Assembly: GCA_947476295.1 (NCBI GenBank)
Contig: CANJQC010000004.1
Location: forward strand, 1 to 64,000
Reading direction: 5' to 3'
DNA length: 64,000 nucleotides
From: Planctomycetaceae bacterium
GTDB lineage: Bacteria; Planctomycetota; Planctomycetia; Planctomycetales; Planctomycetaceae
Shown here: positions 3,877 to 44,867 of the stretch, in pieces
How positions within the stretch are numbered: position 1 is the stretch's first letter
Layout of the letters: each line of letters opens with the position of its first letter
The notes under the pieces: model-generated
The model's database searches: none
What the model saw: the letters and a program-made list of their open reading frames with translations, nothing else
Told to the model about the DNA's origin: nothing
Position numbers and translations under genes: made by a program

Positions 3877-5253
3877 CTAATCTGCCGTGACAGTCCCAAA
3901 TACATTATCGTCACTAGTAGAGGCTTTGTTCCCCACGATCTTCCGAATCGTCCGCTTATCGGCGGTGACAGTCCCGGACGTGTAAACCCCGCCACCGATG
4001 CCCTGGCCATGCTGGCCACCAACCGCCCAGTTGTCGGAGATGGTTGACTCGCGAAGGTCCATCCAGCAGGACGAGGCATTGTGCAGCGCACCGCCAAGAG
4101 CGACACCCGCAATTTCACTCCCCGGACTTCCACCAGAAGCGATATTTCCCAAGAAGTGGCAGCGTCTTATCTCTACCTGTTTCACGAGGCTCGAGCCCGT
4201 GCCCGCCGCGAGGACCGCGCCACCGTATGCGCTACCTCCAATGATATCACCACTGCCACCCTCCGCTTCATTTTCAAGCAGGGTGCTCGATGCCGTGACC
4301 AGCGTCGAATTGAAGTTATAGATCGCTCCCCCGCCGGCATCCGCACCAGACTGTCCGGCTCCACCAATCGCGCCAATGGAGAGATTGGCGATGAAGAGAC
4401 AATTCTCGATCATCGTCAGGCTCCCCGAACCATCCACGGTTCCGGGTCGAGTGGCGATTGCGCCACCAAATGCCTTCTCACCGGAGTCGGTCCCACGGGC
4501 GGTATTTTCGTCAAATGTGCAGTCGATGACAGTCAACTCACTGCCTCCAAAATTGCCGATTCCGCCTCCATAACTCGTACCACCCGATATGGCCAAGTTA
4601 TCTGTAAACATACAGTCTTCAATGATCGCCACCGATTCGGTAACGTTGCCGATAGCGCCACCAAAAGCGTAACGTTTCCCGCCAAAGGCAACGTTGTCGA
4701 TGAACTGGCAGTTGATCGCGGTGAGCATTGCAAAACCCGTGTTGACGATGGCGCCGCCGCCCACAACGTCTGAGCTGACGTTATCGATCGTCACATTGTT
4801 GCACATTGTTACTCGGCAGAGATTTAGTTTTCCGCCGTCGTTCAGGATGGCACCGCCGCGTGTGACGAGTATGGAAATACTCTCCTGAACAATATTACGG
4901 CCATCAGCGATGGTGAGGTCCTTGATAGACACATCGACTTCAGGTCGAATCATAAAGATTCGGCTGGCATTGCTACCGCTCACCGTGAGCTGAGTCTCGC
5001 CGAGTCCAGCAATCGTCAGCGGGCCCGAAATCTCTAATTGACCGCTGGTAAGCTTGATTTTGCCCTTGAGATTTTCCCGGAAGCGAATCACATCTGCCCC
5101 CGATGTTTCATTGGCACTGGCCACTGCGGCCCGCAGTGAGCCGGCCCCTGCATCCCTGAGGTTCGTCACGATGATGATGCTCGCCGATGCGCTGGGTGCA
5201 AGGCATATGATGCAGATAAGAGCGGCGAGCAGGCTGGACGGATTCGTTGGCAT
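3877..5253 (-). CDS. Secreted right-handed beta-helix protein (Pmp-like repeats)
   Basis: A 458-residue exported protein. It begins with a Sec signal peptide (hydrophobic 'LLAALICIICLAPSASA'). Next comes the 'NLRDAGAGSLRAAVASAN' segment that opens many polymorphic-outer-membrane-protein-like and 'choice-of-anchor' surface proteins, then repeated rungs of the form C-x-F/L-x-x-N-x-A-x-x-G ('CQFIDNVAFGG', 'CMFTDNLAISG', 'CTFDENTARG', 'CLFIANLSIG'). These rungs predict a parallel beta-helix. No C-terminal membrane anchor or sorting motif is obvious, and the C-terminus repeats the words 'GTVTAD', so the end may be slightly altered. Likely a surface or extracellular adhesin-like protein; the ligand is unknown. 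It is monocistronic and faces the relic region. Confidence 0.8.
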   Translation of the reverse strand: MPTNPSSLLAALICIICLAPSASASIIIVTNLRDAGAGSLRAAVASANETSGADVIRFRENLKGKIKLTSGQLEISGPLTIAGLGETQLTVSGSNASRIFMIRPEVDVSIKDLTIADGRNIVQESISILVTRGGAILNDGGKLNLCRVTMCNNVTIDNVSSDVVGGGAIVNTGFAMLTAINCQFIDNVAFGGKRYAFGGAIGNVTESVAIIEDCMFTDNLAISGGTSYGGGIGNFGGSELTVIDCTFDENTARGTDSGEKAFGGAIATRPGTVDGSGSLTMIENCLFIANLSIGAIGGAGQSGADAGGGAIYNFNSTLVTASSTLLENEAEGGSGDIIGGSAYGGAVLAAGTGSSLVKQVEIRRCHFLGNIASGGSPGSEIAGVALGGALHNASSCWMDLRESTISDNWAVGGQHGQGIGGGVYTSGTVTADKRTIRKIVGNKASTSDDNVFGTVTAD

Positions 5254-5525
5254 GTTGTCTTCCTAGTACCGAAATAACGAAAAATCAAGAGTGGATGAGG
5301 ATTTTGAGAACCATGGGTGTGGCTGATCATCCACGAGTTCCCATTGGGGGTTTCTCACAATGACTGGGGAAACCTTCGAGCACGGAAGTCACTGGTGATT
5401 CACCGGTTAATGAGGCATTTGGAATCATGACTCGACCCCGGAGAGTCTGACAAGCTGACCTTCAGTTTTCGCGATAAGAAAGGCGGGCTGTCTTTGAGGA
5501 TTTGCGAAACCCTTGAAGAAGACGA

Positions 5526-5706
5526 TCACTTGCTGCCGATGGCGTAGAGCGTTTTGCTCGATCGGATAAACAGCGTGCCGTCAGCCAATGCAGGTGTTGA
5601 CCAAAATCGAACATTATCAACGGCAGGCAAAACATTTTTTGCGACCAAGTCGAGCGTTCGACTCGGTTGCAAAAGGAAAGTCTGGCCACTGGCGTGGTGA
5701 CGAAAA
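5526..5706 (-). pseudogene. PQQ-type beta-propeller protein, C-terminal remnant
   Basis: Only the last ~60 codons of a secreted PQQ-like beta-propeller repeat protein are left. The frame reads through 'GQTFLLQPS', 'LVAKNVLPAVDN', 'FWSTPALADGTLFIRSS' and ends 'KTLYAIGSK', matching the last blade of such proteins. There is no start, signal peptide or upstream blade. Bases 5254-5525 to its left hold nothing recognisable. This is a relic and cannot fold into a propeller on its own. Confidence 0.65.
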
Positions 5707-5834
5707 ATTATCAGAAATTATCATGGGGCCAGCCATATATTGGCAGCTGTTGCGGCAGTTTGTAGAATCTGGTGGCTCCAGTCAATGGTGGGACGATTAG
5801 TGTTTCATCAGTTTCGTTCTTTGGAGCTTAGACC

Positions 5835-6465
5835 ATGGCACGTACAAATCGAGGGGATGTGTTGGCGGCGGGCGAGATTCAGGTGGTGCATTGCATCAAT
5901 CGATGCGTGCGGCGGGCCTATCTCTGCGGACAAGATCCGGTCACCGGGACTGAGTTATGAACATCGGCGGGAACTCATCCGTGAGCGGCTGGAATTTCTG
6001 GCGGGAATCATGGGGATTGAAGTTCTTGGCTATTCGGTCATGAGTGACCATTTCCACTGTATTTTACGCAGTCGATATGATGTGGTGCAGACATGGTCGG
6101 ATCAGGACGTGGCTCGGAAGTGGTGGCTGTTGTGTCCGGCTCGCAAGACGAAAGAAGGCCTTCCCGCCGATCCCACGGAGTTTGAATTGAACTCGATTCG
6201 CAGCGATACAAGAGGCCTGAAGGAAAAGCGTGTCCGGCTGTCGAGCATTTCATGGTTCATGCGGTTCCTGTCAGAGCGCGTTGCAAAAGTCGCGAATAAA
6301 CAAGACCAGTGCTCCGAGCGCTTTTGGGAGGGTCGATTTCGCGGACAAATTTTGCTGGATAGTGCCGCGATTCTGGCCTGTCTGCAGTACGTAGATTTGA
6401 ATCCCGTGCGGGCGAATATCGCCACGAGTCCTGAGTCCAGTGATTTCACAAGTGCTTCAGTTTGA
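5835..6465 (+). pseudogene. REP-associated tyrosine transposase-like (Y1_Tnp) gene, frameshifted
   Basis: Homologue of the Y1 (HUH) transposase-like proteins common in planctomycetes. The first frame starts at ATG 5835 (MARTNRGDVL) and covers 'VVHCINRCVRRAYLCG', then stops near 5957. The rest continues one frame over: 'LEFLAGIMGIEVLGYSVM', the HUH motif 'SDHFHCIL', and 'CLQYVDLNPVRANI', the conserved end of the core. A single-base insertion near 5945-5955 explains the break. The second half ends early at 6465, while relatives have a longer C-terminal tail; the next 250 bases have a degenerate continuation in other frames. Probably inactive now, but it is a plausible former mover of the palindromic repeats seen elsewhere in the window. 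Confidence 0.8.
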
Positions 6466-6702
6466 GCGTCTTGGGATCTCGACAGAGATGTGGGTTCACT
6501 GCGTGATGAGTTTCCGGAAATGGTTCCGCTCGAACGTTGGTCGTCCGAAGTCGATGGAGGCCGCCGCCGAAACCCGCGGCCACAACCGAGCCATCAGCAT
6601 CAACTCCGCCCGCCGAGCATTCACCTAGACCCGTGTTCGAGCCAGCTCCCCAAAGCTGACTCCTTTACGCAGACGTAGATGTTAAGATGGATGGCCACGT
6701 GA

Positions 6703-38882: not shown

Positions 38883-40298
38883 TCAGAACGACTTCTTTTG
38901 CCTAGGAAATCCGGCCCACTGCGGAGTGCTGCCGGAATTTCCACATCGCTCCCTGGGAAGGAGGACACCATTCAATTCGACCGATTTTTCTGCCGATTCA
39001 ACTGCCGACAATACTGCATTTGAGACTCTCGCTGAGCCGGTGCGTTCCAATTGGCGTCGCGGTTCGACACTTTCAAGCAGGTGGTCATCCTCCGATTTGC
39101 TGAAGCGATCTGCGTCTTCTGGCGGATCGGTAGAGGAATCTCTAATCGACATGCCCGGTTTGACGCTGTATTTGTCGTACGGTATTTCCGGATCCACAAG
39201 CTTGCGCACTGTCGCGTCAGGCGAGCTTGGCACTGGTGCGGCGAACGAGGCTTCCCGATTAGTTGAGACATGTTTGGATCGAGTCTCATTGTTTTCAACG
39301 CTGGCATCTCGATCTCTGGCTTTTGCTTCGGGCCTGACCATTGGTGCTGGCACCGCGACTGGCTTCACACGCTGCAGATCAGGACTCTGAAGCCGAACCG
39401 TTGCGCCTTCGAGCGAACGACGCGGTTTTAATACGGAAGGCTGCGTTAATGGGTCTGCTACCATCTCCGGACGAGCGGTCGCCTGAGATAAAGATTCCGG
39501 TGAATCCTCATTCGCTGCCAGCATTTGATCTCGCGGCAACGTTAGTTTCGGCATGCCAGCCAATACCCAGCCCTGCCAGTTATGTTCCAGCGATTCAATG
39601 CCTTCGTGATCAAAGTTTGTGCGGATAGCATCTTCCCAGCTTCCGCGTTCGCCATCGGAAATGAATTTCAGATACGCATGACGCCCTTTCTGCTGCACCA
39701 GAAAGTCAGCGAGGGCATATCCCTGAGCATACAACGTCAGCATGGGACGTTGTCCGCGGGGATATTCTTTCATAGCCAACAGATCCCGCAATGAGATCAA
39801 TTCATGCTTATTGCGAATGATTTCGTTCAACAGAGACAACTGTTTCAGCTGTTCCGAACGGTGTTCAAACAACGTCGCCGCGCCTTCATCCGCCCAGCGA
39901 GGCAGCGGACGGCGAAAATGACAGGCGAAGATCGTATGATTAATTTCATGCGGCAGTACGGAATCCAGAATTCGTTCCAGCGATCCCTGCACCTCCATTC
40001 GCCAGTTGAGCACTTCGCCGCGCACGAATTGAAACGTCGTCTGCCCGCCCGCTCCCAGCGCACCTTCATTGACCCGAATTTTGCAGGGACGGCTCCAGTT
40101 CGGCAGCGGTTTGCCCAGCCAGAAAATTGCGAGTTGCTGGCGATAAACTTCCGCCGCCTTGCCAACCTGTTCGGCGACATCCGGCCGATCAGCGGTGACA
40201 GCAAAATTGACGGTCTGAAACGTTGCGGCTTCAGTCGTGGTGCAAGCAGCAACCAACGATAGTGCCACGGTCAGACATCGCAGTATTCGAGCGTCCAT
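38883..40298 (-). CDS. Secreted gluzincin-like metallopeptidase
   Basis: A 471-residue exported protein with an N-terminal signal peptide ('CLTVALSLVAACTTTEA'). The peptidase domain carries 'VLPHEINHTIF' (HExxH near residue 115) and, about 20 residues later, 'RWADEGAATLFE', supplying the Glu third zinc ligand of MA-clan (gluzincin) enzymes. The rest of the core ('LYAQGYALADFLV', 'GRHAYLKFI') is that of a peptidase MA-like family. The C-terminal ~220 residues are low-complexity, Ser/Pro/Arg-rich and not recognised. The start at ATG 40298 is used; GTG 40304 is an alternative. Substrate unknown. Confidence 0.85.
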   Translation of the reverse strand: MDARILRCLTVALSLVAACTTTEAATFQTVNFAVTADRPDVAEQVGKAAEVYRQQLAIFWLGKPLPNWSRPCKIRVNEGALGAGGQTTFQFVRGEVLNWRMEVQGSLERILDSVLPHEINHTIFACHFRRPLPRWADEGAATLFEHRSEQLKQLSLLNEIIRNKHELISLRDLLAMKEYPRGQRPMLTLYAQGYALADFLVQQKGRHAYLKFISDGERGSWEDAIRTNFDHEGIESLEHNWQGWVLAGMPKLTLPRDQMLAANEDSPESLSQATARPEMVADPLTQPSVLKPRRSLEGATVRLQSPDLQRVKPVAVPAPMVRPEAKARDRDASVENNETRSKHVSTNREASFAAPVPSSPDATVRKLVDPEIPYDKYSVKPGMSIRDSSTDPPEDADRFSKSEDDHLLESVEPRRQLERTGSARVSNAVLSAVESAEKSVELNGVLLPRERCGNSGSTPQWAGFPRQKKSF

Positions 40299-40557
40299 GC
40301 TCACCCTGTGCGTCGTTTAAAGAAAAATTTATCGGCAACGAATCCTTTCGTCGCTCCGTTTCGAATCAGCCGCAAATGCCGAACCGGTCTATTCTCTTGA
40401 TCACATTTTTTGCCTGCGGCAGAATCGCAATTCCTTTCTCAAAAAGTACTTGCGACATCCAGCATTTGTTTCGATGATCTGCCGAGGCAGACATTTGAAC
40501 TTCGGCAGATTCTGCAGAAGTTACATAAATTGTCGATTTTACATCCAGAGCAATCCC

Positions 40558-41397
40558 ATGAAAATTCGAAAAGCTGTCATCACGGCGGCTGGTGATCATC
40601 ACGCCCGACTGCCACTTCAGACTCTCGTCGATCGCCGCGGCGAGATTCGCACGGCGTTGCGGCTGATGCTGGATGAGGTCGTTGATTCCGGGATCGAAGA
40701 GGTCGCGATCATCGTTCGCCCCGGACAACAGGATCCATACCTTACCGCTGCAGGGCCTCATGCTTCGCGACTGGTCTTTTTTGAACAGTCCAATCCACGA
40801 GGTTACGGTGATGCGATTCTGCGAGCCCGTGATTTCGGAGCCGGTGAAGCGTTTCTGCATCTCGTCTCGGACCATCTGTACCTCAGCCGCACCGACCGCC
40901 TGTGCGCTCAGCAACTGGTCGAAGCCGCCACGAAATATGAATGCTCTGTGTCTGCGATTCAGCCAACGCGCGAAAACGAAGTCGCGTTCTTCGGTACAGT
41001 CGGCGGAACTCCCCTGGCTCAGTCGGACAACCTGTACGAAGTCAACACCGTGATCGAAAAGCCCACGCCAACGATCGCCGAGCAACGCCTGATCGTGGCC
41101 GGGCAACGCGCGGGCTACTATCTGTGCATGTTTGGAATGCATGTTCTCACACCGACGGTATTAACGCTGCTGCAAAGGTCACTCGACACTGCACCTCCCG
41201 GACAAAATATCGACCTGAGCAGTTCATTGAATCAACTTGCCCGGACCGAACGCTTTCTCGCGCTCGAAATCGACGGGTCTCGTTACAACATCAGCTACAA
41301 GTACGGCTTGCTGCTGGCTCAGCTCGCATTTTCACTCAGCGGTGATGATCGGGATCTGATCCTGACAGAATTAGTGACTCTGTTGGCGGCCAAATAA
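40558..41397 (+). CDS. GalU-like nucleotidyltransferase with degenerate active-site loop
   Basis: A 279-residue protein of the NTP-transferase (GalU/RmlA) fold. The N-terminal strand 'RKAVITAAG' is normal, but the following loop, normally GxGTR-x(5)-PK, is 'GDHHARLPLQTLVDRRG' with neither the Arg nor the Lys in place. Later landmarks remain: 'EVAIIVRPGQ', 'RGYGDAILRARDF', 'HLVSDHLYLS' where LGDD is usual, and 'VIEKPTP'. So it probably binds a sugar nucleotide but may not catalyse transfer. The next gene, 161 bases downstream and codirectional, is a kinase/UDP-sugar pyrophosphorylase fusion, which suggests a regulatory or partner role. It is divergent from the secreted peptidase. Confidence 0.75.
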   Translation: MKIRKAVITAAGDHHARLPLQTLVDRRGEIRTALRLMLDEVVDSGIEEVAIIVRPGQQDPYLTAAGPHASRLVFFEQSNPRGYGDAILRARDFGAGEAFLHLVSDHLYLSRTDRLCAQQLVEAATKYECSVSAIQPTRENEVAFFGTVGGTPLAQSDNLYEVNTVIEKPTPTIAEQRLIVAGQRAGYYLCMFGMHVLTPTVLTLLQRSLDTAPPGQNIDLSSSLNQLARTERFLALEIDGSRYNISYKYGLLLAQLAFSLSGDDRDLILTELVTLLAAK

Positions 41398-41408
41398 CAG
41401 CATCTGAA

Positions 41409-41529
41409 CGGCGAGCGGCAGTCCTCCGAGCACACGCCGGTTGGAAAGTATCGTAGCTCGGTGGGCTGAAGCCCAACCGCTCGCCGAAGACGCATCCCGG
41501 AAATTCCTCGCCATTGGCTCGAGTCAAAC
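41409..41529. repeat. Degenerate palindromic repeat cluster
   Basis: Outer arms 41409-41418 (CGGCGAGCGG) and 41477-41486 (CCGCTCGCCG) pair perfectly. An inner palindrome lies around 41462-41475 (TGGGCTGAAGCCCA). The left part resembles the arms of the 62648-62749 element. At 41506-41529 is a half-copy of the 22863-22922 element. So fragments of at least two families sit in one gap between the two sugar-nucleotide genes. Confidence 0.6.
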
Positions 41530-41558
41530 GAATCCCTGTAACTGACCAAAGTACACCC

Positions 41559-44500
41559 ATGAACCTTCTCTCCATCATCACTTCCACCGACTCTACTGTC
41601 CGCAATCGCTCGCTCGACGTTGCCTGTCTCGGCCTGTCCCTCGACGAACTCTTGCGCGAAGGTCAGCATCTCGATGAGTATCGGCGAGGCTGCGACAACC
41701 TGTACAATTGCGTTCGCTGTCTCTTCTTTCTCTACGCGATTCACCGCTTTCATCTGCCGATTCAGCTTGCTGGCCGTGAAAGCGGACGCATCCCGTACGG
41801 CGGCTATGAGCACATGCTCAATCGCCGATATCCGGAAGCCATTGATGTCTTTCTGTCGCGTCTGTTGACTGATGGCCCATCCGTTTCACTCTCCAGCGCG
41901 CTGGGCGAAGCCTATCATCGGCTGGCGTTTCAGACGCTGGCGGATCAGGTGCGCCGAAGCGTGCGGACTGTCCGAGGCAACCAATGGATGTTTCGTACCG
42001 GGCATCCGGCTGATGTACCGCTGCGTATCCGTCCCGAGCTGCTGACCATCGACGAAAGTACCAACAGCTATCCGATCCTCCGTGAACGCACGGCTGTCCG
42101 GATGGATTTTACGCACAGCGGCTGGAGCGACATCTTTTTCCTCGGCATGGATTATCCGGAAGGTGCGAAGGTAATCAATGCGTCGATTGATCTGGCCGTG
42201 CGGGGTCGCCACCAGAAACCAGAACCACCCATTGACTGCAGTCTGCGCGTCATCGACGAACCAGTGTTACGACTCATCAGTATTGACCTCGATGCGAAAG
42301 TCGAAATCCGCGAGATCAATGAAGTGTTCGACTTCGCCCGCGACTATCTCGGCCTCATTAAAGGCGCGGTGATTGCCGCTGGACTGATTCCACCGGGCAT
42401 GGAAGGCTGCGGTGGTAAAATCGCGGATGTATTTTCACGCATGATCGGGCCTGGCCTAGGCCTCGAAATCACCAGTCGAGTCAACGATATCCCAAAGGGC
42501 TCGCGACTGGCAGTGTCCACGAACCTGCTGGGATCGCTGATCTCGATGTGCATGCGGGCCACCAGTCAGGTTTCCGCGTTTACCGGACAACTTGAAGAAT
42601 CCGATCGCCGCATTGTGGCCGCGCGTGCGATTCTGGGAGAATGGATTGGCGGATCAGGCGGCGGATGGCAGGATTCCGGCGGCGTGTGGCCAGGCATCAA
42701 ATTGATTCAGGGTTGCACGGCCGGTCCCGATGATCCGGACTACGGCATCAGCCACGGTCGCTTGATGCCACAGCATCATGTGTTCACTCAGAAAGAAGTC
42801 AGTGACGAAACTCGTCGCCGGTTGCAGGACAGTCTCGTTCTCGTTCACGGCGGCATGGCGCAGAACGTCGGACCGATTCTGGAAATGGTCACCGAGAAAT
42901 ATCTGCTTCGCTGTGAACGCGAATGGGCGGCACGGCAGGATGCCATCGGCCTGCTGGAACAGATCACGGCATCACTCAAAGCGGGCGATATTCCTAGCAT
43001 CGGCCACGCGACGCATCGCAACTTTCACGAACCTCTGCAGGCTATCATTCCGTGGTGCAGCAACGCATACACAGAACGCCTGATTCAGGAATGCCAAGCG
43101 AAGTATGGCCCGCGTTTCTACGGCTTCTGGATGCTCGGCGGCATGGCCGGCGGCGGCATGGGATTCATCTTCGACCCAGCGATCCGCGAAGAAGCGCAGG
43201 GTTGGCTGCAGGCGATGATGCTTGACGTCAAACGCAGCATGGAGGCGAGCGTACCGTTTGCGATGGACCCCGTGGTTTATGACTTCGCCATCAACGACAA
43301 CGGCACGTTCGCCGAACTGCGTCACGACGGTGGTCTGCCGAAAGGCTACCACGCGCTGATGGTTCCGGACTGGCTGCGTCGAGGCCTGCAGCAGCTCACG
43401 CCGATGCTTCGCAACGAACTGGAACGTGTCGGCAATGCGTGCCGCGATTCCGTCGGTGGTGACAATCTTGCATCGCGACTGATCCAGCGGCTTCTGCCTT
43501 CCACATCGAAAGAAGCGCAGCAGGCGGCGCGTCTGGAGGATCTGTTGCGAGAAAACGGCTTCGACCCGATTGCCCACGAACATCTGCGCGAAGACTTGCG
43601 ATCAGGGCGATTGGGGATGTCTCAGAATCGGTTGCCTGCGTCTGTTACCATTGAAGATGTTTCCCACGAAGACGTCATCGAAGCCCGCCGCAATATTCCT
43701 TTGACGGCGATTGAACTTGGACGCGCGGCGATTGTAAATGGCGAAGTCGGTGTGATCTCGCTGGCTGCCGGCGTCGGCAGCCGGTGGACTCAGGGTGCCG
43801 GTGTCGTGAAAGCACTGAATCCATTCTGCAAAATGGGTGGTCATTGGCGTTCGTTTCTGGATATCCACTTCGCCAAAACGCGGCGAGTCGCAAGGGAATT
43901 TGGTATCTCACCACTACATGTCGTGTCGTCGGGTTATCTTACCGATTCTCCAATTCGCGACGCCGTGGAACGACTGAACAAACTCAGTGCTGGCGGCATT
44001 TTCCGAGTTTCCCGCGGTGCATCAGTCGGTCTTCGGATGGTTCCGACTTTGCGTGACCTCCAGTTTACATGGGAAGAAGTCGCCCAGCAGGTATTGGATC
44101 AACAGAAGGAAAAAGTCAGGATCAGTCTGCGGTCCGCATTGATGAACTGGGCTCGCACAGCCGGCGAAGCATCGGACTACACCGACAATCTTTCGTCACA
44201 GTGCATGCACCCGGTCGGCCATTGGTATGAAGTCCCCAACATGCTGCGAAACGGCACATTGCGACAGATGCTGACCGATCGACCGCATTTGAAATACCTG
44301 ATGCTGCACAATATCGATACGCTCGGAGCCAACATCGATGCCGGTTGCCTTGGCCTGCATATTCAGTCCAATGCTGACCTGTCATTCGAAGTCATCAGTC
44401 GCCGTCTGGAAGACCGAGGCGGCGGATTAGCAAGAGTGGATGGCCGAGTCCGTCTCGTGGAAGGCCTCGCTATGCCGCGCGAAGAAGATGAATTCCAGTT

Positions 44501-44867
44501 GTCGTGGTACAACTCACTGACCACGTGGATCGACATCGATCGCCTGCTGTCGGTCTTCGGCCTTGACCGAGCGGCCTTGAGCAATCCAAAACTCGTCGAT
44601 GCCGCTATCCGGGAACTCGGACGCCGCATGCCCACGTACATCACGCTCAAGGACGTCAAGAAACGCTGGGGCCACGGTCAGGAAGACGTGTTCCCGGTAT
44701 CGCAGTTCGAAAAACTCTGGGGCGATATGACAGCCCTCTCGGACGTCAATTGTTCGTTCCTCGTCGTTCCCACACTCCGTGGCCAGCAACTCAAGGACCC
44801 CGCCCAACTTGACGGCTGGTTGCGAGACGGTTCCGCCGCACATGTGGAATCGCTGTGTGCGTGGTAG
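41559..44867 (+). CDS. Fucokinase-like GHMP kinase fused to UDP-sugar pyrophosphorylase
   Basis: A 1102-residue two-enzyme protein. Residues ~1-300 are an unassigned N-terminal part. The GHMP kinase core follows: 'IPKGSRLAVSTNLLGSLI' (near 310, the ATP loop IPKGSGLGTSS of fucokinases, here with changed Gly and Ser residues) and 'GSGGGWQDSGGVWPGIKLIQ' (near 363; fucokinases have GTGGGWQDQ). From ~725 comes a UDPGP-type pyrophosphorylase: 'ISLAAGVGSRWTQGAGVVKAL' (G-loop plus Lys), 'LHNIDTLGANIDAGCLG' and 'DRGGGLARVDGRVRLVEG'. Such proteins would phosphorylate a sugar at C1 and then make UDP-sugar. Order is kinase first, opposite to bacterial FKP. Cytoplasmic. Start 41559 (MNLLSIITST). Its TAG stop overlaps a palindromic repeat. 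Confidence 0.82.
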   Translation: MNLLSIITSTDSTVRNRSLDVACLGLSLDELLREGQHLDEYRRGCDNLYNCVRCLFFLYAIHRFHLPIQLAGRESGRIPYGGYEHMLNRRYPEAIDVFLSRLLTDGPSVSLSSALGEAYHRLAFQTLADQVRRSVRTVRGNQWMFRTGHPADVPLRIRPELLTIDESTNSYPILRERTAVRMDFTHSGWSDIFFLGMDYPEGAKVINASIDLAVRGRHQKPEPPIDCSLRVIDEPVLRLISIDLDAKVEIREINEVFDFARDYLGLIKGAVIAAGLIPPGMEGCGGKIADVFSRMIGPGLGLEITSRVNDIPKGSRLAVSTNLLGSLISMCMRATSQVSAFTGQLEESDRRIVAARAILGEWIGGSGGGWQDSGGVWPGIKLIQGCTAGPDDPDYGISHGRLMPQHHVFTQKEVSDETRRRLQDSLVLVHGGMAQNVGPILEMVTEKYLLRCEREWAARQDAIGLLEQITASLKAGDIPSIGHATHRNFHEPLQAIIPWCSNAYTERLIQECQAKYGPRFYGFWMLGGMAGGGMGFIFDPAIREEAQGWLQAMMLDVKRSMEASVPFAMDPVVYDFAINDNGTFAELRHDGGLPKGYHALMVPDWLRRGLQQLTPMLRNELERVGNACRDSVGGDNLASRLIQRLLPSTSKEAQQAARLEDLLRENGFDPIAHEHLREDLRSGRLGMSQNRLPASVTIEDVSHEDVIEARRNIPLTAIELGRAAIVNGEVGVISLAAGVGSRWTQGAGVVKALNPFCKMGGHWRSFLDIHFAKTRRVAREFGISPLHVVSSGYLTDSPIRDAVERLNKLSAGGIFRVSRGASVGLRMVPTLRDLQFTWEEVAQQVLDQQKEKVRISLRSALMNWARTAGEASDYTDNLSSQCMHPVGHWYEVPNMLRNGTLRQMLTDRPHLKYLMLHNIDTLGANIDAGCLGLHIQSNADLSFEVISRRLEDRGGGLARVDGRVRLVEGLAMPREEDEFQLSWYNSLTTWIDIDRLLSVFGLDRAALSNPKLVDAAIRELGRRMPTYITLKDVKKRWGHGQEDVFPVSQFEKLWGDMTALSDVNCSFLVVPTLRGQQLKDPAQLDGWLRDGSAAHVESLCAW

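What the first reader, a model, noticed from the sequence alone, without database searches (positions are those of the whole stretch)
41559..44867. Two-enzyme sugar salvage fusion: GHMP kinase then UDPGP pyrophosphorylase
One 1102-residue chain carries a fucokinase-like GHMP kinase part (IPKGS...ST, GSGGGWQD) and a UDP-sugar pyrophosphorylase part (LAAGVGSRW, HNIDTLGA, DRGGGLARVDG). This is the reverse domain order of bacterial FKP and uses a UDP-type rather than a GDP-type partner. It suggests direct conversion of a free sugar to a UDP-sugar. The N-terminal ~300 residues match nothing I recognise. The glycine-rich ATP loop of the kinase has substitutions, so the kinase half may be altered.
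Basis: partly seen in the sequence, partly recalled or inferred. Interest (0 to 1): 0.75.

Follow-up and report, generated by a model that had tools for sequence, protein, structure and literature searches.

The report
Reversed fucokinase-like salvage enzyme with partner
A large bacterial enzyme, found patchily in several phyla, seems to turn a free sugar into an activated nucleotide-sugar in two steps on one chain, in the opposite domain order to the known fucose-salvage enzyme and usually beside a small companion protein that looks catalytically dead.

Summary
The ORF is real (41559-44867, +, 1102 aa). Residues 1-590 match the fucokinase half of FKP, linker included; residues 649-1102 are a UDPGP-fold (UGPase/UAP) pyrophosphorylase. 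Order is reversed relative to FKP, and the pyrophosphorylase comes from another superfamily. In a 52-kinase tree the kinase half is sister to 17 FKP kinases (UFBoot 100). FKP's key residues are kept in 89-90 of 90 relatives, except T602 (Ile); the P-loop GSRLAVST is equally fixed. UGPase K135/H228/D258/K403 are kept as K751/H888/D920/K1079, but no conserved Gln replaces the uracil contact, so UTP is unproven. A GalU-like gene lies upstream on the same strand in 73 of 80 related loci; in 50 of 50 partners aligned the catalytic loop and lysine are deleted. Some outgroup GalU-like proteins with full-length loops sit beside (one) or are fused to (two) other GHMP kinases. Best reading: a sugar, perhaps of L-fuco configuration, is phosphorylated at C1 and then activated to an NDP-sugar, with a pseudo-GalU accessory subunit. 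Sugar and nucleotide are undetermined. Ten literature searches listed no paper on it. New variant of a known kind.

The parts
40558..41397 (+). GalU-like nucleotidyltransferase-fold partner (279 aa) without the GxGTR...PK catalytic loop; probable accessory subunit
   Evidence: TIGR01099 galU E 7.5e-23; PDB GalU-family matches to 3.1e-38 with the family profile; AF2 model pLDDT 95.9, VIA Z 32.2 (rmsd 2.3, 253 residues) to a GalU; loop deleted in 50 of 50 rows; upstream of the fusion in 73 of 80 loci
41398..41558 (+). 161-bp intergenic leader with a predicted hairpin; no function shown
   Evidence: MFE -55.3 kcal/mol, z -1.98, 7 of 200 shuffles as good: weak
41559..44867 (+). kinase-pyrophosphorylase fusion, 1102 aa, stop included
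41559..42074 (+). residues 1-172: helical region equivalent to the FKP linker
   Evidence: 9iit_A and 5yys_A align from model residue 1; helices
42075..43328 (+). residues 173-590: GHMP kinase domain, sister to FKP fucokinase
42489..42521 (+). residues 311-321 IPKGSRLAVST: variant phosphate-binding loop
   Evidence: R316, A318, S320 and T321 in 90 of 90 rows
42660..42674 (+). residues 368-372 GGWQD with the catalytic Asp (FKP D762)
   Evidence: W370, Q371 and D372 in 89 of 90, one gap
43329..43502 (+). residues 591-648: linker between the two enzyme halves
43503..44864 (+). residues 649-1102: UDPGP-fold sugar-1-phosphate nucleotidylyltransferase
43761..43811 (+). residues 735-751: nucleotide-binding loop LAAGVGSRW... 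to K751 (UGPase K135)
44046..44198 (+). residues 830-880: core of a stretch about 40 residues longer than in other UDPGP proteins (exact borders uncertain)
   Evidence: T795 to H888 spans 93-102 residues in 11 fusion proteins against 51-55 in 11 other UDPGP proteins; conserved within the main family, less so in the four most distant members (29-37% identity)
44307..44318 (+). residues 917-920 HNID with the metal Asp D920 (UGPase D258)
44793..44795 (+). K1079, equivalent of the essential UGPase K403
   Evidence: alignment; K in 89 of 90, one gap

Best explanation
A two-step sugar-salvage enzyme. The N-terminal half (1-590), a sister lineage of FKP fucokinase, phosphorylates a free sugar at C1 with ATP. 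The C-terminal half (649-1102), a UDPGP-fold pyrophosphorylase, couples the sugar-1-phosphate to an NTP and releases PPi, giving an NDP-sugar. The sugar is perhaps of L-fuco configuration (L-fucose, L-galactose, D-arabinose or a relative); the NTP is more likely UTP than GTP. The closely linked upstream gene makes a GalU-fold protein that has lost its catalytic loop and probably acts as an accessory or regulatory subunit. Shown by computation: gene, folds, kinship, conserved residues, gene linkage, loop loss. Inferred: activity of both halves, order of reaction, sugar, nucleotide, and complex formation with the partner.
For: Structure: AF2 model pLDDT 87.5, pTM 0.88. VIA Z 29.9, rmsd 3.1, 354 residues to the fucokinase part of FKP (9iip), and Z 33.3, rmsd 3.2, 347 residues to yeast Ugp1p. 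Kinship: in a 52-sequence kinase tree the 18 fusion kinases are monophyletic (UFBoot 100) and sister to 17 FKP kinases (fusion plus FKP split from 17 other GHMP kinases with UFBoot 100). All 17 FKPs (E 3e-25 to 5.5e-11) score better with the fusion-kinase profile than any of the 19 other kinases matched (best L103, 3.3e-8). Kinase residues: FKP R592, W599, D601, S719, E751, Q761, D762 are R181, W189, D191, S320, E361, Q371, D372: R, W, D and S in 90 of 90, the others in 89 of 90 with one gap. Adenine-pocket positions D243, L244, L266 and L323 are 90 of 90. Pyrophosphorylase residues K751 and H888 are 90 of 90, D920 and K1079 89 of 90 with one gap, mapped to AnUGP K135, H228, D258, K403. Partner: upstream on the same strand in 73 of 80 loci, 72 of the 73 within 300 bp; over 66 ORF pairs the median gap is 5 bp with the longest-ORF start and 17 bp with the start aligned to the window's.
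Against: No assay. FKP T602 (a C3-OH contact) is I192 in all 90; the P-loop Gly-Leu-Gly is Arg-Leu-Ala in all 90; a residue is inserted before the sugar Trp (H186 invariant). The kinase has diverged a long way (stem branch 1.57) and may use another sugar. The sugar Trp is not unique to FKP: one of the 17 other kinases, L103, also has GGWTD. No conserved uracil Gln. The UGPase glucose-site residues N256, E307 and N329 are kept (N918, E968, N985), which does not point to a fucose-1-phosphate. No GH29 fucosidase match at E <= 1e-10 in the window's own genome, and no enrichment in fusion genomes (7 of 17 against 15 of 43). No sugar transporter or glycosyltransferase stands out as a common neighbour.
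Confidence: 0.68

Rival explanations
1. It is a second, convergent FKP: the sugar is L-fucose and the pyrophosphorylase half uses GTP, giving GDP-L-fucose, although its fold is UDPGP.
For: Sugar-contacting residues of FKP mostly kept; no conserved uracil Gln: the profile-aligned position 821 holds Arg or Lys in 66 of 90 and Gln in 8; elsewhere in 812-839 Gln reaches at most 21 of 90, at 835.
Against: AnUGP of the same superfamily is UTP-specific (passages of PMC10470519). One of six fusion genomes searched, G297, also has an FKP-like gene (E 4.9e-135, 450.5 bits, below the 721-bit cut-off; its kinase falls in the FKP clade), which argues for different products. T602 is replaced by Ile in all 90. 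GH29 fucosidases are not enriched.
Confidence: 0.15
2. It is a galactose (or arabinose) salvage enzyme that makes UDP-galactose or UDP-arabinose directly, replacing the Leloir GalK/GalT route.
For: UDPGP fold; a related GalU-like protein with an intact loop lies near a galactokinase-like GHMP kinase (L159), and two others are fused to a GHMP kinase (L161, L162).
Against: The kinase is in the FKP lineage by the tree (galactokinases were not in that tree). GalT-family genes are as common with as without the fusion (9 of 17 against 18 of 43).
Confidence: 0.1
3. The kinase half no longer phosphorylates sugar and serves as a sugar or nucleotide sensor for the pyrophosphorylase half.
For: P-loop substitutions invariant in all 90.
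Against: General base, Arg, Glu, metal Ser and adenine-pocket residues are kept; in the four most distant members the kinase half is more like the window's than the pyrophosphorylase half is (49.4-51.3% against 39.5-44.1% identity; one of them, L086, is incomplete).
Confidence: 0.08
4. The kinase half uses the PPi released by the pyrophosphorylase half as its phosphate donor, so the enzyme recycles PPi.
For: An extra Arg (R316) in the phosphate loop in all 90; fusion to a PPi-producing enzyme.
Against: Adenine-pocket positions are kept; I know of no PPi-using GHMP kinase (recalled, not searched).
Confidence: 0.03

Closest known systems
FKP, bifunctional L-fucokinase/GDP-fucose pyrophosphorylase (Bacteroides fragilis; PMC11982464, PMC12732313)
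   Same: Homologous kinase half with the helical linker and mostly the same sugar, base and metal residues; a kinase and a pyrophosphorylase on one chain
   Different: Order reversed; pyrophosphorylase from the UDPGP superfamily instead of the GFPP domain (PF07959, for which the window's genome has no match at E <= 0.001); P-loop RLA instead of GLG; T602 is Ile; GalU-like partner gene
UDPGP superfamily: eukaryotic-type UGPase and UAP/AGX
   Same: Fold, phosphate-binding Lys/His/Lys and metal Asp
   Different: Fused to a kinase; seems to end without the C-terminal beta-helix of UGPase (judged from the aligned ranges); about 40 extra residues before the catalytic His; no conserved uracil Gln
Zebrafish glucuronokinase/UDP-glucuronate pyrophosphorylase GKUP (PMC3938481)
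   Same: GHMP sugar-1-kinase plus nucleotidyltransferase on one chain; free sugar to UDP-sugar
   Different: There the nucleotidyltransferase is N-terminal and resembles bacterial single-domain nucleotidyltransferases; kinase of another GHMP branch (branch recalled)
GalU (TIGR01099), for the partner
   Same: Fold, the EKP motif and the first Asp
   Different: GxGTR...PK loop deleted in 50 of 50 rows; second metal Asp lost in 28 of 50
WcbL/HddA heptose 1-kinases
   Same: GHMP fold; WcbL VIA Z 29.7, tied with FKP
   Different: Of the 17 other GHMP kinases in the tree (not individually identified as heptokinases), 10 show GGGTD where FKP and the fusion have GW[ST]D, one (L103) shows GGWTD and 6 matched no pattern; all lie outside the fusion+FKP clade

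Membership tests
FKP (bifunctional L-fucokinase/GDP-fucose pyrophosphorylase) | kinase half of the FKP/FUK lineage | tested here: met
   sister to 17 FKP kinases, UFBoot 100 against 17 other GHMP kinases; sister, not nested
FKP (bifunctional L-fucokinase/GDP-fucose pyrophosphorylase) | GFPP-type pyrophosphorylase (PF07959) | tested here: not met
   no PF07959 match at E <= 0.001 in the genome; the half is PF01704 UDPGP
FKP (bifunctional L-fucokinase/GDP-fucose pyrophosphorylase) | pyrophosphorylase N-terminal, kinase C-terminal | tested here: not met
   reverse order
FKP (bifunctional L-fucokinase/GDP-fucose pyrophosphorylase) | score over the NCBIfam cut-off NF009948 (721 bits) | tested here: not met
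   59.4 bits
FKP (bifunctional L-fucokinase/GDP-fucose pyrophosphorylase) | makes GDP-fucose from fucose | not testable with these tools
   needs an assay
UDPGP superfamily (PF01704) | score over the Pfam cut-off | tested here: met
   34.1 bits, cut-off 22
UDPGP superfamily (PF01704) | catalytic Lys, His, Asp, Lys (AnUGP K135, H228, D258, K403) | tested here: met
   K751, H888, D920, K1079; residue roles from passages of PMC10470519
UDPGP superfamily (PF01704) | uracil-contacting Gln (AnUGP Q198) | tested here: inconclusive
   no position in 812-839 holds Gln in more than 21 of 90, but the alignment there is uncertain because of the extra residues (searches place the Gln differently)
GalU (for the partner gene) | GxGTR...PK catalytic loop | tested here: not met
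   8 columns deleted in 50 of 50 rows of the main clade
GalU (for the partner gene) | score over the TIGR01099 cut-off (326.8 bits) | tested here: not met
   81.4 bits
Zebrafish-type GKUP | nucleotidyltransferase domain then glucuronokinase on one chain | tested here: not met
   kinase first, UDPGP second

The most novel reading that the evidence does not exclude
A widespread, uncharacterised NDP-sugar salvage system in which an FKP-derived kinase with a rebuilt phosphate loop and a UDPGP pyrophosphorylase with new residues near its base site act on a sugar/nucleotide pair not known from any salvage pathway (for example UDP-L-fucose or another UDP-L-fuco-sugar). It would be controlled by a GalU that was once the pyrophosphorylase of a sugar-kinase pair and became a dead regulatory subunit after the UDPGP domain took over.
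Probability: 0.25. Interest if true: 0.75.

Novelty: new variant of a known kind. Interest (0 to 1): 0.55.

Why it matters
A 2025 study favours a single fusion event for all known FKPs (PMC12732313, sections 4 and 8 read). This family is a separate joining of a sister kinase lineage to a pyrophosphorylase, from another superfamily and in the other order, and it is spread over several phyla. It gives a natural comparison for how kinase-pyrophosphorylase fusions evolve, a candidate biocatalyst for making nucleotide sugars from free sugars, and a case in which a companion enzyme appears to have become a pseudoenzyme.

Tried and rejected
Pfam on residues 1-172 and on 575-724 gave nothing up to E 10; the FKP linker match appeared only by structure.

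Gene context for the sugar: apart from the fusion itself and the GalU-like gene, no protein cluster was present in more than 10 of the 80 loci (from my ORF list and within at most 8 kb). The 42 same-strand genes within 250 bp showed no recurring sugar function in the 25 of 57 families listed (top: TP_methylase in 4 of 42; a bacterial sugar transferase in 1).

GalT and GH29 presence do not track the fusion. These counts used 60 of the 294 genomes: all 17 with the fusion and 43 that I picked from those without.

I first placed the UGPase K403 equivalent at the 'PVSQFE' segment; the multiple alignment put it at K1079.

I first took the relatives to start at the window's methionine. Checked: 11 of 78 have ATG at that column; the others carry another codon there, so their starts lie at least one residue upstream (not counted). 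The ATG at 41559 remains the likely start, but a TTG at 41514 is also in frame.

An early count of 66 GalU-like neighbours came from a greedy ORF list that missed some; tblastn gave 73 of 80. Of the 7 without it, 3 (L006, L008, L055) have about 100 bp or less upstream, and 4 (L019, L037, L043, L054) have about 1 kb or more with no match.

Loci L052 and L057 were dropped from alignments because my ORF list broke them; tblastn shows both genes there. Of the 29 loci L100-L128, six are fusion members (left out as duplicates), two (L109, L116) were left out of the kinase tree for length, and four (L119, L125, L126, L128) never entered because the fusion-kinase profile gave no match. Several FKP rows in the tree are partial (257-293 aa), and four of them lack the sugar-Trp segment.

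PMC3888555 was looked at in passages only and gave nothing used.

Literature: 10 searches. None listed a paper on this fusion. This covers open-licence PMC only; I judged from listings, and (2,897 papers; 39 papers) listed only 15 each.
Full report
What is there. The frame at 41559-44867 on the + strand is open and codes for 1102 residues. The ORF lister also gives an in-frame TTG at 41514. Relatives begin close to the window's ATG, but only 11 of 78 have ATG at exactly that column, so the start is certain only to within some residues. The window's genome is held as G000, 5.99 Mb in 252 contigs. It is probably a planctomycete, by the 92% identical best hit in a record titled Planctomycetota (inference).

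Domains. NCBIfam FKP model NF009948 matches residues 173-533 at E 1.4e-16, far below its cut-off. Pfam UDPGP matches residues 879-999 at E 1.6e-8, above its cut-off. The best PDB sequence matches are FKP for the first part and UGPases, with UAPs further down, for the second. An AlphaFold2 model built on 64 aligned sequences has pLDDT 87.5 and pTM 0.88. Structure comparison gives Z 33.3 (rmsd 3.2, 347 residues) to yeast Ugp1p for 661-1100, and Z 29.9 (rmsd 3.1, 354 residues) to the fucokinase part of FKP for 142-588. Full-length FKP aligns from model residue 1 (9iit_A, Z 27.1, rmsd 3.9, 455 residues, chain 487-949). The heptokinase WcbL ties with FKP in Z (29.7), so fold alone does not choose between them.

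Which kinase. I collected 17 FKP proteins, 17 other GHMP kinases caught by the FKP model, and 18 fusion kinases. An IQ-TREE (LG+G4, 346 columns) puts the fusions together (UFBoot 100), the FKPs together (92), and fusion plus FKP apart from the rest (100). The stem of the fusion clade is long (1.57). So the kinase is a sister of FKP kinase, not nested in it. One of the other kinases, L103, also has the GGWTD motif, so the Trp alone is no proof.

Active sites. From sections 8-10 of PMC11982464, FKP uses R592, W599, D601, T602, S719, E751, Q761 and D762. In 90 aligned fusion proteins (the window, 78 of the 80 loci, and 11 of the 16 loci), R181, W189, D191 and S320 are invariant. E361, Q371 and D372 are in 89 of 90, with one gap. 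T602 is Ile in all 90. The glycine-rich loop, GSGLGTSS in most FKPs, is GSRLAVST in all 90. Positions matching FKP's adenine pocket (D644, M645, I669, L722) are D243, L244, L266 and L323, all 90 of 90 (the pairing follows the phmmer alignment). For the pyrophosphorylase I used passages of PMC10470519: K135, H228, D258 and K403 correspond to K751, H888, D920 and K1079. Of the sugar-site residues, N256, E307 and N329 are kept (N918, E968, N985), and N331 is variable (Asn in 13 of 90). The uracil-contacting Gln198 has no conserved counterpart. The profile alignment with L151 puts it at 821, which is Arg or Lys in 66 of 90 and Gln in 8; the alignment with the UGPase L129 puts it nearer 835, Gln in 21 of 90; no position in 812-839 does better. 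Between T795 and H888 the fusions have 93-102 residues (11 proteins) against 51-55 in 11 other UDPGP proteins, so about 40 residues are added near the base site. The nucleotide cannot be read from the sequence.

Partner gene. A GalU-like gene (40558-41397) lies upstream. By tblastn it is in 73 of 80 related loci, in all 73 upstream on the same strand, and in 72 of them within 300 bp. Over the 66 pairs called as ORFs the median gap is 5 bp with the longest-ORF start (25 at 0 or overlapping) and 17 bp with the start aligned to the window's methionine (7 at 0 or overlapping); in the window it is 161 bp. Its profile hits GalU structures, and its model (pLDDT 95.9) fits a GalU at Z 32.2 (rmsd 2.3, 253 residues). 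The catalytic GxGTR...PK loop is gone by an 8-column deletion in 50 of 50 aligned rows (the window and 49 of the 66 loci with a called ORF). The second metal Asp is Asn or Pro in 28 of 50. The divergent member L087 keeps a full-length loop. Of seven outgroup proteins, all with a full-length loop and its lysine, L159 stands in a cluster with a galactokinase-like GHMP kinase and a phosphatase-like gene, and L161 and L162 are fused to a GHMP kinase but lack GTR. For L160 no sugar kinase was among the ORFs tested, and L163-L165 were not tested. The tree puts L159/L160 just outside the partner clade plus L087 (FastTree support 0.915). This suggests that the GalU-like protein once was the pyrophosphorylase of a sugar-kinase pair and lost that role; this is inference.

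Distribution. A copy on a Hymenobacter plasmid is broken into several frames. In the window's phylum 17 of 294 genomes have the fusion at E <= 1e-30, so it is patchy and not core. Strong GalU-like matches (over 250 bits) are in 13 of 294, 11 of them with the fusion; 6 of the 17 fusion genomes lack one, some of them fragmented. The fusion may therefore exist without the partner, which fits an accessory role.

Which sugar. GalT-family genes (9 of 17 against 18 of 43) and GH29 fucosidases (7 of 17 against 15 of 43) do not track the fusion, and the window's own genome has no GH29 match. No neighbour recurs. Of six genomes with the fusion searched with the FKP model, one (G297) also has an FKP-like gene at E 4.9e-135; this speaks against simple duplication of function. 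[quoted passage not shown] I therefore favour a sugar of that configuration, but with low confidence.

Compared with what is known. PMC12732313 (abstract, sections 4 and 8 read, term search) favours one fusion of GFPP and FUK as the origin of all known FKPs. Words beginning with 'UDP' or 'planctomycet' do not occur in its main text. The zebrafish GKUP (abstract and sequence section read) has a different kinase and the other domain order. The window protein works like these but fails FKP's defining tests (domain order, GFPP domain, model cut-off). I file it as a new variant of a known kind.

Noticed in passing
   Followed up: partly
L161 8099-10048 (-) and L162 around 4620-6517 (+): GHMP kinase fused N-terminally to a GalU-type nucleotidyltransferase (L161), the opposite order to the zebrafish glucuronokinase fusion.
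   Followed up: partly
L097 12001-15327 (Hymenobacter volaticus plasmid NZ_CP095065.1): Plasmid-borne copy with its GalU-like partner annotated, but the fusion itself lies in several frames and carries no gene in the PLSDB table (which is incomplete); probably a decayed copy.
   Followed up: no
   Followed up: no
window 41398-41558: The intergenic leader between the two genes folds into a long hairpin (MFE -55.3, z about -2); may be chance.
   Followed up: no
window 38883-40304 (-): The upstream divergent gene (473 aa; by eye a secreted protein with an HEINH metal-binding-like motif) has relatives in 4 of the 80 loci, each within 1.5 kb upstream of the fusion.
   Followed up: no
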